Positions 26,589-30,083 of a DNA stretch of 44,930 nt are shown in pieces. Position numbers and translations under genes: made by a program. The notes beneath the pieces are model-generated. The model made no database searches, was not told where the DNA came from, and saw only the letters and a program-made list of their open reading frames with translations. The stretch covers positions 1,569-46,498 of the forward strand of contig NZ_AOIN01000099.1 of NCBI RefSeq assembly GCF_000337135.1, given 5' to 3'. The stretch's first letter is position 1. Every line of letters begins with the position of its first letter. The DNA is from Natrialba chahannaoensis JCM 10990 (GTDB taxonomy: Archaea > Halobacteriota > Halobacteria > Halobacteriales > Natrialbaceae).

Positions 26589-27011
26589 GGACCGATAGTG
26601 TCAGTTGGTCAGTCAAACGAGCCGAAGTCAACGCCGGAAGCGCGCCCGAGACGAGGTCGCCACGCTCGCCTCGAGCACTACTGGGCGCATTTTTTCGCAG
26701 ATTTAGCAAGAGAAACCGAACAACCCCCGCTCGCCGCAACGCGACCGCCGAACGGAGGGGAACGAAGCATACACGATAGCGCGTGTGGAACAAACTTATT
26801 CTTTGCGACCCCAACCAATTTGGCCTCGATTGGTCGGTCAGCGGTGGTCTCGGACACGACTCGAGTCGGTTCGTCGCGTGTCCTGACTCGCTAGAGACGG
26901 TTCGTATCGGAAACGGGACCAACATTCGAGGGCAATCACGCCGCGCCGTCGGGCGGTCCTCCGTCGTCCTATCCCACGAAATTTATACCTCCTGATTGCT
27001 TACGCATACCT
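26589..27011. other. 423-bp divergent spacer with an orphan promoter-like site
   Basis: The spacer separates dapA and htpX. Besides the htpX TATA box it holds an isolated TATA-like CTTATT at 26795-26800. An imperfect inverted repeat follows (CCAACCAAT at 26811-26819 with ATTGGTCGG at 26829-26837, one mismatch), near where a transcript from that box would start. A small RNA is possible. No open frame here looks like a protein. Confidence 0.35.
26982..26987 (+). promoter_or_regulatory. htpX TATA box
   Basis: TTTATA lies 25-30 bp before ATG 27012, preceded by a purine-rich element (CACGAAA), a good match to a haloarchaeal BRE-TATA pair. The transcript is probably leaderless. Confidence 0.65.
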
Positions 27012-27836
27012 ATGACAGACTTTGGATTGAAGCTGCGAATGTTCGTTGTCGGTTCGCTCCTGGCGGCGCTGTACCTGTTTGTTGGGGCCGTCGGGCTGGC
27101 GTTCCTGGGCACGGGTGCCTGGCCGATCGTCCTCCTGCTTTTGATTACGTTCCCCTTCGTCCAGTACAAGTTCGGCGTCTGGAGGGCGACCAGAAAGGCC
27201 AAAGAGATGCCAGAGAACGCCCAATATAAAGAGATTCATCGAATGACGGAGTCGCTCTCCCGCGATATGGCCATCGACAAGCCCAAACTGATGGTCCAGC
27301 AGATGGGCGTTCCCAACGCCTTCGCGACTGGCCGGAAGGGCAACGGCGTCGTCGTCGTCAGCGAGGAGCTCATCCGCCTGCTGGATCGTGACGAACTCGA
27401 GGGCGTCATCGCCCACGAACTCGCTCACATCAAGAACCGCGACGTGTTGATGATGACGGTCGGGAGTTCTATCGGGATGATGGTCGGCTACGCCGTCTAC
27501 TTCGTCTACGCGTTCGCGGGCGAGGACAACCCCGGGGGCTTCATTGTGGGGCTGATCCTCTCGATGTTCGCCCAGATGCTCGTCACGGTGCTGGTGATGG
27601 CAATCTCGCGCTACCGCGAATACATCGCCGATGACGACGCGCGCCAGTATATCGGCAATGGCGACCCGCTCGCTCGAGCACTCGAGAAGATATCGAAAGG
27701 CGCTGAGAACCGCGAATCAACCATTGACGACGGCCAGGCCGCACTTTGTATCTTCAACTCCGAGCGCGGGCTGCTTGAGTCGGTGTTTGCGAGCCACCCG
27801 CCGACGGAAAAGCGCATCGAGAAGCTCCGAAGCTGA
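27012..27836 (+). CDS. htpX: HtpX-like M48 membrane metalloprotease
   Basis: A 274-aa zinc protease of the M48B/HtpX type that in bacteria degrades damaged membrane proteins. Visible: two N-terminal membrane helices (residues ~8-30 and ~34-55), the zinc motif HELAH in GVIAHELAHIKNRD near residue 136, two further helices at ~150-200, and the third ligand Glu in YREYIADDDARQ. The C-terminal ASHPPTEKRIEKLRS is typical. A strong TATA box lies 25 bp upstream. It is the last housekeeping gene before the halocin-like locus. Confidence 0.93.
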   Translation: MTDFGLKLRMFVVGSLLAALYLFVGAVGLAFLGTGAWPIVLLLLITFPFVQYKFGVWRATRKAKEMPENAQYKEIHRMTESLSRDMAIDKPKLMVQQMGVPNAFATGRKGNGVVVVSEELIRLLDRDELEGVIAHELAHIKNRDVLMMTVGSSIGMMVGYAVYFVYAFAGEDNPGGFIVGLILSMFAQMLVTVLVMAISRYREYIADDDARQYIGNGDPLARALEKISKGAENRESTIDDGQAALCIFNSERGLLESVFASHPPTEKRIEKLRS

Positions 27837-27860
27837 TTCCTCATTTCTACGCTGTAACCG

Positions 27861-27942
27861 CGAGGATTCTCGGGTGATCGGAACCCAGTAATCCTCGAGC
27901 CGGTAACCTGAGAGGCAGCTCAACAGTGGAACACCCGATCAC
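27861..27942. repeat. interlocking inverted repeats (pseudoknot-capable)
   Basis: CGAGGATT (27861-27868) pairs with AATCCTCG (27890-27897). Inside that loop GTGATCGG (27874-27881) pairs with CCGATCAC (27935-27942). Both are perfect 8-bp matches and cross each other, a pseudoknot topology if transcribed. Confidence 0.5.
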
Positions 27943-27951
27943 TCTGAACAT

Positions 27952-27979
27952 GACCGCCCCCCTTTGAGGGGGGACGGTC
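27952..27979. terminator. strong GC hairpin after htpX
   Basis: GACCG-CCCCCC (27952-27962) pairs with GGGGGG-A-CGGTC (27968-27979) around the loop TTTGA, an 11-bp stem with one bulged A. A TTTT run occurs about 12 bp later. It could end the htpX transcript or be part of a decayed mobile element. Confidence 0.45.
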
Positions 27980-28350
27980 ACGCTACTGTCTTTTGGATAC
28001 TGTCGTTCGAGCGACGACACCTCCCGAAATTTGACCAAATCTCTGATTCGTGAGGTCTACAAGACCGTCAGTCTCTATCGGTCACGAAATATATTTATTT
28101 CCGACAAATCTTGTGCTATTGGCGGACCGCCGACCTTCACTGGACGGTCCAAAATCCGTTCTGTTCCGGTCTACACCTCCCATTAAATATTCTGTGTTCC
28201 ATAACCCTATCGACCTAAAAGAAAAGTATTTAATCAATTATCGAAGTAATTCGACCTATATATTCGTGTTATCAGATTTATGCACTAGTCGGACTACTGT
28301 TTCATGACACTTCGAAAGTAGGATCTCCAATAGATTAATAGAAACGAAAA

Positions 28351-28356
28351 GTATAT
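28351..28356 (+). promoter_or_regulatory. TATA box of the halocin-like gene
   Basis: GTATAT, preceded by a purine-rich GAAACGAAAA (BRE-like), lies 26-31 bp before ATG 28382, the spacing of a leaderless haloarchaeal promoter. Confidence 0.6.
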
Positions 28357-28381
28357 GAAAAAGAGGTAAGGATTTAGAAAT

Positions 28382-29353
28382 ATGAACAGAAACAGCAACA
28401 GATCAAAAGGGTTGAATCGACGAGATATTTTGAAAAAAGGAGGGTTTTCCGGGGTTGCAGGGATTACCATCCTGGGCCAAACTGTCTCGGCGAGACGGAA
28501 CGAATCCAACGATGTGCTTCACGATGTCGAAGCGATCTCGGAAGTCCAGTCAGTCCTTGATGAACTCGGTTACGAGAATATCCCGAGGAAGTACTCGGCG
28601 GCGAAAACAGACTTTGGACCCGAGCCTAACGACGCCACGGTCACCTCCGTTGATTTCGAGTACGGAGCATTACAGGTCATGGAAGCTGGTGGTTCGGTTC
28701 TCGTGAATTTCACGTTCGAGTCTGTGGAGGACGTCCCCAGCAGTGAATACCGAAGCATACCGATAGAGTCAATCCCGGCAGAGTCCGACGCGTGGCTGTA
28801 CGGGCACGAAAACGGTACGCTCCTTTACCGAACGGCTACTCCTGACGAGCGCGATAACGTTCAGTCACTGTTCCCGGATGGGGATTTAAGTGAGGCATCT
28901 ATCTATACACACGAAGACACAGATCGTTTCTTCGTTGAACGAACTGACGAAAAATCACTTGAGAGCGATGAAACCGATCCGACCAGTTATCATGTTTCGA
29001 TAGAAAACGAATTGGTTACACCTGCCCCTGAATCCTCAGACGGTATTGGCACCCGGGTTGTTTCTGGAAACCCGGTCAAGGAAGCTGCTGAGCGTATCGC
29101 GAGACAGTTTGCCAAATCACTCGGTTGGAACAGCCTTGATGGAGTGACCGACGAATGTGCCGCAGCAATCGGTGGTTGTCTTGATGGTCTGTGGTCTACC
29201 GTCGATTGTTATAAGTGCCGTCCCGTTTGCGCCCTGGGGTTGACCGGTAAAGCAGCAGTCGTCTGTTTCCTATGTGTCGGAGCAACCTGTGTAAATCTCA
29301 AGTCTGCAAGTGGCTGTGCGACCGCGGCGAGGTGTGTTGACCGTAACGAGTAA
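28382..29353 (+). CDS. halocin C8-like bacteriocin precursor (Tat-exported)
   Basis: A 323-aa precursor. N-terminus: twin-arginine signal (NRRDILKK at 12-19, hydrophobic 20-36, likely cleavage near Ala37). Residues ~38-256: a Cys-free acidic domain. Residues 257-323: a compact hydrophobic segment with ten cysteines (259, 266, 276, 279, 283, 295, 298, 303, 312, 318). Known family: halocin C8 is made from a Tat-exported precursor of ~283 aa whose N-terminal part is the immunity protein and whose last 76 residues, with ten Cys, are the toxin. Size, order and Cys count match; the residue sequence looks divergent. Inference: self-immune microhalocin released by a protease. Codon use is less GC-biased than neighbours and the upstream DNA is AT-rich, pointing to transfer. 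It could be a relative with another role. Confidence 0.82.
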   Translation: MNRNSNRSKGLNRRDILKKGGFSGVAGITILGQTVSARRNESNDVLHDVEAISEVQSVLDELGYENIPRKYSAAKTDFGPEPNDATVTSVDFEYGALQVMEAGGSVLVNFTFESVEDVPSSEYRSIPIESIPAESDAWLYGHENGTLLYRTATPDERDNVQSLFPDGDLSEASIYTHEDTDRFFVERTDEKSLESDETDPTSYHVSIENELVTPAPESSDGIGTRVVSGNPVKEAAERIARQFAKSLGWNSLDGVTDECAAAIGGCLDGLWSTVDCYKCRPVCALGLTGKAAVVCFLCVGATCVNLKSASGCATAARCVDRNE

Positions 29354-29355
29354 CT

Positions 29356-29433
29356 ATGGAATCGAGCGACCTGATCAGTTCGCTCAACAGGCTGAACGAA
29401 TCGTTTGATCCGAACGGACCACCAACATTGACA
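29356..29433 (+). pseudogene. truncated start of a gene coupled to the halocin-like gene
   Basis: Two bases after the TAA of the halocin-like gene an ATG (29356) opens a frame with good protein character (MESSDLISSLNRLNESFDPN). After ~25 codons it runs into the hairpin at 29437-29458 and then stops at 29491-29493. The tight spacing suggests a second gene of the halocin operon (accessory or transport), cut off by a mobile-element end. Its family cannot be told from the stub. Confidence 0.5.
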
Positions 29434-29468
29434 TCCTCCTCCGCGTTCACGCGGAGGAATCCCACGGC
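29434..29468. mobile_element. solo IS200/IS605-type end hairpin
   Basis: TCCTCCGCG (29437-29445) and CGCGGAGGA (29450-29458) form a perfect 9-bp stem with loop TTCA. It is set in TTGACATCC...GGAATCCCAC, the context I associate with right ends of haloarchaeal IS200/IS605 (tnpB-type) elements. No tnpA or tnpB gene is in the window, so this is a remnant. Without a database the exact element cannot be named. Confidence 0.5.
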
Positions 29469-29502
29469 ACCGCACCGCTGGATTGGGATATAAATGATTG
29501 AC

Positions 29503-29527
29503 CGGGTCGATTGTTCAATTCGACCCG
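29503..29527. repeat. 8-bp inverted repeat before the NYN gene
   Basis: CGGGTCGA (29503-29510) and TCGACCCG (29520-29527) are perfect complements around a 9-nt loop. It lies between the element remnant and the NYN-gene TATA box; a terminator or operator is possible. Confidence 0.4.
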
Positions 29528-29556
29528 TCTCATTCCCAGTCCGTCGAGCGACGCGA

Positions 29557-29585: not shown

Positions 29586-30083
29586 GTGACCGAAATCCAT
29601 CCGGACCAACGCGTCGCGGTGCTCGTCGACGCGCAGAACCTGTATCACTCGGCGCAGAGTCTCCACAGCCGTAACATCGATTATTCGGCACTCCTCTCGA
29701 AGGCCGTGCAGGATCGCCAGCTTACGCGCGCTATCGCCTACGTGATTCGCGCGGAGGCACCCGAAGAAGAGAGCTTCTTCGATGCACTGGTAGATATCGG
29801 CTTCGAGACGAAGATCAAGGACATCAAGACGTTCTCCGATGGCACCAAGAAGGCCGACTGGGACGTCGGCATGAGCCTCGACGCGGTGACACTCGCAAAT
29901 CACGTCGATACGGTTGTCCTCTGTACGGGCGACGGCGACTTCTCGCGACTCTGTTCGCACCTGCGACACGAGGGCGTACGTGTTGAAGTGATGGCGTTCG
30001 AGTCCTCAACGGCCGACGAACTAATCGACGCAGCGGATGCGTTCCTCGACCTCGACGAACGCCACGACACGTTCTTGCTCTGA
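29586..30083 (+). CDS. NYN-domain (LabA/DUF88-like) protein
   Basis: A 165-aa PIN-like/NYN domain protein, a fold of metal-dependent ribonucleases. The acidic active-site residues are visible: RVAVLVDAQNLYHSAQSL (first Asp and Asn), KADWDVGMSLDAV (central Asp residues) and VVLCTGDGDFSRLCSHLR (the GDGDF motif). The C-terminus ADELIDAADAFLDL is typical of LabA/DUF88. GTG 29586 follows a TATA-like box by 26 bp. Probably RNA processing or decay; the target is unknown. Its normal GC-rich codon use marks the return to core genome after the halocin locus. Confidence 0.85.
   Translation: MTEIHPDQRVAVLVDAQNLYHSAQSLHSRNIDYSALLSKAVQDRQLTRAIAYVIRAEAPEEESFFDALVDIGFETKIKDIKTFSDGTKKADWDVGMSLDAVTLANHVDTVVLCTGDGDFSRLCSHLRHEGVRVEVMAFESSTADELIDAADAFLDLDERHDTFLL

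What the first reader, a model, noticed from the sequence alone, without database searches (positions are those of the whole stretch)
29354..29493. Second gene of the halocin operon truncated by an element end
An ATG two bases after the halocin-like stop opens ~25 good codons that run into the IS200/IS605-like hairpin. Such tight spacing implies an operon partner (accessory, transport or processing) lost here. The host may keep an orphan toxin/immunity gene.
Basis: partly seen in the sequence, partly recalled or inferred. Interest (0 to 1): 0.66.

Follow-up and report, generated by a model that had tools for sequence, protein, structure and literature searches.

The report
Insertion-sequence stump behind a halocin-like gene
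Just behind a halocin-like toxin gene in a salt-loving archaeon lies a 63-base leftover of a common insertion sequence; the 24 codons between the two look like chance, so a lost partner gene is possible but not shown.

Summary
The coordinates are right. The halocin-like ORF (28382-29353) stops, CT follows, and an ATG at 29356 opens 24 codons that end exactly where an insertion-sequence end begins (29428). That end is real: 63 bp identical or nearly so to the right end of tnpB-bearing IS200/IS605 elements (Rfam sot0042 omega-RNA type), with a sharp outer border, and cut off at the tnpB stop codon. Residues 25-45 of the listed ORF are therefore element sequence.

The "second operon gene" is not supported. 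The 24 codons have no relative in 392 genomes of the order. Their codon score is uninformative and the arrangement is expected in about 5% of shuffles. The syntenic same-orientation relative (G039) has no gene there. Authentic halC8 loci have no small membrane-protein gene directly behind them. One fact keeps the idea alive: 18 of 33 halocin-like genes are followed by a small multi-TM ORF, against 4 of 33 preceded by one, and two such ORFs overlap or lie 3 nt behind the stop. A lost partner stays possible (about 0.25).

Side results: the halocin-like gene sits in a recombined foreign patch with a non-native htpX allele, and it matches HalC8 in architecture but not in sequence beyond the Tat signal region.

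The parts
26590..29545 (.). Foreign patch (approximate borders): htpX allele, halocin-like gene, open stretch and IS stump, in an own-genus backbone
   Evidence: Backbone about 90% identical to G003/G004/G005 up to 26590 and again further right (84.9-86.8% just right of the patch from 29587), while htpX is 72-75% to own genus and 82-88% to 19 genomes of other genera; upstream 26589-27011 also matches g16 genomes
27012..27836 (+). htpX-like M48 metallopeptidase, non-native allele
   Evidence: Pfam Peptidase_M48 2e-35; allele comparison
28382..29353 (+). Halocin-C8-like precursor, 323 aa, Tat signal, 10-Cys C-terminal domain (Cys 259-318)
   Evidence: ORF; family alignment A1; Cys positions; no Pfam or NCBIfam hit
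29356..29427 (+). 24 open codons (MESSDLISSLNRLNESFDPNGPPT) between the halocin-like stop and the element; coding status unproven, compatible with chance
29428..29490 (-). 63-bp right end of a tnpB-bearing IS200/IS605 element (tnpB would run on the - strand from the right); tnpB, omega-RNA scaffold and left end missing
   Evidence: Sharp common border and 63-nt distance to the tnpB stop in full copies; TnpB Pfam OrfB_IS605 6e-27; full copies hit RF02656 sot0042, this stump does not
29437..29458 (.). Terminal hairpin of the right end
   Evidence: RNA fold of 29428-29492, -29.6 kcal/mol, z -4.45
29491..29493 (+). Stop codon of the listed 45-aa ORF, formed at the inner break point of the stump
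   Evidence: Alignment A3: full copies read TTA here (complement of the tnpB stop), window TAA
29493..29535 (+). Second inverted repeat right of the stump, origin unknown (terminator or other)
   Evidence: Fold -16.8 kcal/mol, z -3.46
29586..30083 (+). NYN-domain gene, native anchor of the site
   Evidence: Pfam NYN 1e-40; orthologues in 122 of 125 family genomes

Best explanation
An IS200/IS605 element inserted about 74 bp behind a horizontally acquired halocin-like gene and then decayed, leaving only the 63-bp non-coding right end. The ATG and 24 open codons in front of it are most likely ordinary spacer that is open by chance, and the listed 45-aa ORF is that spacer read into the element end. 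Shown: the element end, its exact outer border, its loss from the tnpB stop codon onward, the absence of detected relatives of the 24 residues, and the recombined patch. Inferred: that the spacer is non-coding and that no partner was lost.
For: Element end. The best matches elsewhere cover about residues 24-45; residues 1-24 alone find only themselves, with nothing else better than E 0.2 in 392 genomes. Codon score ambiguous and arrangement at 5% chance. The syntenic same-orientation halocin-like gene in G039 is followed by about 115 nt of non-coding DNA and then the NYN gene. Authentic halC8 loci (80-100% to the HalC8 query: L167-L172) have no small membrane-protein gene directly behind them. 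No similarity to the N termini of the small membrane partners.
Against: 18 of 33 halocin-like loci have a small multi-TM ORF just downstream, and two of these start within 4 nt of the stop on the same strand, so a tight partner is not unheard of. Absence of relatives of 24 residues is weak evidence, because the candidate partners are themselves very divergent.
Confidence: 0.62

Rival explanations
1. The 24 codons are the true start of a second operon gene, perhaps a small membrane protein giving immunity or aiding export. The IS200/IS605 element inserted after codon 24, and a later deletion removed the gene's remainder with most of the element.
For: Exact abutment of open frame and element. 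Small TM ORFs follow many halocin-like genes, two of them overlapping or 3 nt behind the stop. The partners of L020 and L075 are related (E 5e-8) although they stand in opposite orientations, which argues that the association is real.
Against: No homologue; no membrane segment in 24 residues although most same-strand partners start one by residue 25; the syntenic relative lacks it; nothing recognisable of a 3' remainder between the stump and the NYN promoter region.
Confidence: 0.27
2. The fused 45-aa ORF (24 host codons plus 21 element codons) is now expressed as a new small protein.
For: The frame is continuous to TAA 29491.
Against: Residues 25-45 are a non-coding element end read in one of its frames; no relatives as a protein.
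Confidence: 0.04
3. The stump is kept because it acts as a transcription terminator or RNA end for the halocin-like transcript.
For: Strong hairpins on both strands (z about -4.4).
Against: Full copies match the sot0042 omega-RNA but the stump does not, so the scaffold is lost; no second copy of the full 65 nt in the genome.
Confidence: 0.07

Closest known systems
IS200/IS605 (IS1341-type) tnpB elements of haloarchaea with sot0042 (RF02656) omega-RNA
   Same: Right-end sequence, terminal hairpin, sharp TTGA border, 63 nt to the tnpB stop
   Different: Only the 63-bp right end remains; no tnpB, scaffold or left end
Halocin C8 precursor (ProC8, halC8)
   Same: Tat signal, long N-terminal part, C-terminal 10-Cys domain at the end of one precursor
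   Different: No detectable sequence match outside the Tat signal region; different Cys spacing
Halocin-C8-related loci L176-L178 with a 125-aa 4-TM gene 78-98 nt downstream
   Same: Secreted Cys-rich precursor with a candidate second gene
   Different: Their second gene is intact, conserved across two genera and a clear membrane protein; here nothing comparable is seen

Membership tests
IS200/IS605 right end | Conserved end with a sharp border shared by unrelated insertion sites | tested here: met
   Common border at TTGACATCC in full copies
IS200/IS605 right end | Adjacent tnpB ending at a fixed distance | tested here: not met
   Full relatives have the tnpB stop 63 nt inside with Pfam OrfB_IS605; the window copy has no tnpB, so it is a remnant
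IS200/IS605 right end | sot0042 omega-RNA match | tested here: not met
   L003, L032, L033, L035 hit RF02656 at E 1e-14 to 1e-19, below its gathering score; the window does not
Halocin C8 family | Tat signal plus C-terminal 10-Cys domain in one precursor | tested here: met
   RR motif and Cys 259-318
Halocin C8 family | Sequence homology of the mature Cys domain to HalC8 | tested here: not met
   HalC8 query finds authentic loci (100% in G050) but nothing in G000; profile comparison aligns only residues 1-65
Halocin C8 family | Antihaloarchaeal activity of the cleaved peptide and self-immunity of the N-terminal part | not testable with these tools
   Needs expression and plate assay
Operon gene behind a halocin-like gene | Conserved downstream coding sequence in relatives | tested here: not met
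   No relative of the 24 residues; G039 syntenic locus without it
Operon gene behind a halocin-like gene | Coding signature of the open stretch | tested here: inconclusive
   Codon score lies between genes and spurious ORFs

The most novel reading that the evidence does not exclude
Halocin-like precursors form a polymorphic toxin family usually followed by a variable small membrane protein that serves as immunity, and this locus is an orphan toxin whose partner was cut by an IS200/IS605 insertion.
Probability: 0.2. Interest if true: 0.5.

Novelty: new member of a known kind. Interest (0 to 1): 0.24.

Why it matters
By itself it is a decayed insertion sequence next to a halocin-like gene. The by-product matters more: many halocin-like genes, and a HalC8-related subfamily, are followed by a small multi-TM gene, whereas authentic halC8, known to carry its own immunity (title of Sun et al. 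2005, cited in PMC11509114), has none directly behind it. That makes separate immunity genes for archaeal peptides a testable idea.

Tried and rejected
The 24-residue query was too short for the search for related loci; a degenerate DNA pattern for part of the 24 residues found nothing in viral contigs; the exact stump-plus-junction found nothing in genome contigs. A weak DNA hit of the stretch in L042 is gapped and lies antisense to another reading frame; rejected as chance. The HgcC Rfam hit (20.6 bits, gathering 50) was rejected as far below threshold. Orthologous NYN loci were a poor control for the membrane-ORF statistic (12 of 23 positive downstream) because they are orthologous and share one conserved neighbour; the upstream flanks of the same halocin-like loci were used instead. 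The membrane-ORF count rests on simple hydropathy and raw ORFs, so single entries may be spurious. Whole-genome codon training was not possible, so the codon model rests on 38 genes of the window. No paper on genes flanking halocin C8 loci was found in the library; two sources I wanted (a 2019 mBio survey and PMC2566001) are not held, so novelty of the downstream membrane genes is not established.

Full report
What is there. The halocin-like ORF runs 28382-29353 and ends in TAA; CT follows and an ATG at 29356 opens a frame that stops at 29491-29493, 45 codons in all. The window lies in contig C99 of a 4.31 Mb draft genome, G000, in a genus of seven held genomes. The family is probably Natrialbaceae: the partner gene at L088 (G088) is 100% identical to that on the Natronococcus occultus plasmid record L090; this is an inference.

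The element end. Searching the 45 residues through 125 family genomes returns many matches, the best of which cover about residues 24-45. Lined up on DNA, full copies in other genomes share a block that starts at TTGACATCC with unrelated flanks before it. In the window this border is 29427/29428. In nine of the copies from other genomes that were inspected the tnpB stop codon lies exactly 63 nt inside the border, and the neighbouring protein of one tested copy is TnpB (OrfB_IS605 6e-27, Cas12f1-like_TNB 2e-20). Full copies match Rfam RF02656 sot0042, the omega-RNA family of haloarchaeal IS200/IS605 elements (E 1e-14 to 1e-19, below the gathering score), and the window does not (family background in PMC12558985). 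The window keeps the 63 nt and diverges at the tnpB stop codon. The stump folds strongly (z about -4.4 on both strands). No second copy of the whole 65 nt exists in the assembly; only 36-nt partial matches at 94% and 89% do. So the hairpin is a true, decayed IS200/IS605 right end, oriented with tnpB on the minus strand, and the last 21 codons of the listed ORF are element.

Is the rest a gene? 24 codons remain. They have no relative in 392 genomes of the order; the next best matches have E above 0.2, and no meaningful DNA match exists among the loci fetched. Codon log-odds do not separate them from spurious ORFs. An ATG within 10 nt of a stop with an open frame to the border occurs in 5.3% of shuffles. 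Nothing resembling a 3' remainder lies between the stump and the NYN-gene promoter region.

Related loci. Same-genus genomes have no halocin-like gene: htpX is followed after about 100-300 nt by the NYN gene. Two other genera carry a halocin-like gene at this same site. In G039 it has the same orientation, 37% identity, and no second gene. In G102 it is inverted and faces a 141-aa four-TM ORF. Other genomes carry different small inserts at the site. Across 33 halocin-like loci a small ORF with two or more hydrophobic segments lies within 350 nt downstream in 18 and upstream in 4 (Fisher p 0.0005; 17 loci down only against 3 up only, p 0.003). Ten such ORFs are on the same strand and nine convergent; two start within 10 nt of the stop, L029 (3 nt) and L073 (overlap of 4 nt). 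Most are unrelated to each other, but those of L020 and L075 are related in spite of opposite orientation. The 24 residues resemble none of their N termini (best shuffle z 1.7).

Halocin C8 itself. The mature HalC8 sequence used as query was recalled from memory; it matched a held genome, G050, at 100% over all 76 residues, so the recalled letters are those of a real gene, and its precursor in G030-G032 has the published length of 283 aa. Authentic halC8 loci show no small TM ORF within 500 nt downstream, whereas a HalC8-related subfamily in two genera (L176-L178) has a conserved 125-aa four-TM gene 78-98 nt behind the stop. The window precursor is not found by HalC8, and profile comparison aligns only the N-terminal 65 residues with the Tat signal. 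It shares the plan Tat signal, N-terminal part, 10-Cys end, but membership in the HalC8 family is not shown.

How it came about. The backbone is about 90% identical to same-genus genomes G003-G005 up to 26590 and again further right (84.9-86.8% in the stretch just right of the patch), but htpX is only 72-75% to own genus and 82-88% to 19 genomes of other genera. A patch of roughly 2.9 kb with htpX and the halocin-like gene was therefore probably brought in by recombination, and the stump lies at its right side. Whether the element decayed before or after the transfer is not known; the absence of a full sister copy in the draft assembly fits, but does not prove, decay in the donor.

Verdict. 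The element end is confirmed and exact. The truncated operon gene is not supported by homology, coding signal or synteny, but the frequency of small membrane ORFs behind halocin-like genes leaves it at about one in four.

Noticed in passing
window 26590-29545: A recombined patch carrying a non-native htpX allele in an own-genus backbone; the same htpX allele type is scattered through several genera (g9, g16, g19, g21, g23, g27, g28).
   Followed up: partly
L176-L178 (downstream of HalC8-related genes): HalC8-related precursors followed 78-98 nt downstream by a conserved 125-aa four-TM gene, unlike authentic halC8 loci; a candidate separate immunity gene.
   Followed up: partly
L013-L030, L066-L089: Small multi-TM ORFs directly behind halocin-like genes in 18 of 33 loci, same strand or convergent, mostly unrelated to each other.
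   Followed up: partly
Between htpX and the NYN gene in family genomes (L144-L151): The intergenic site is variable: a 147-aa four-TM ORF (L144, L145), a second peptidase-like membrane ORF (L146), secreted-protein-like ORFs (L148-L151) and halocin-like genes occur there.
   Followed up: partly
window 29493-29535: A second inverted repeat just right of the stump (z -3.46) without a match in the family loci; terminator or another small element.
   Followed up: no
L002 1501-1536 (G000:C38): Another right-end-like hairpin in the same genome without an adjacent intact tnpB.
   Followed up: no
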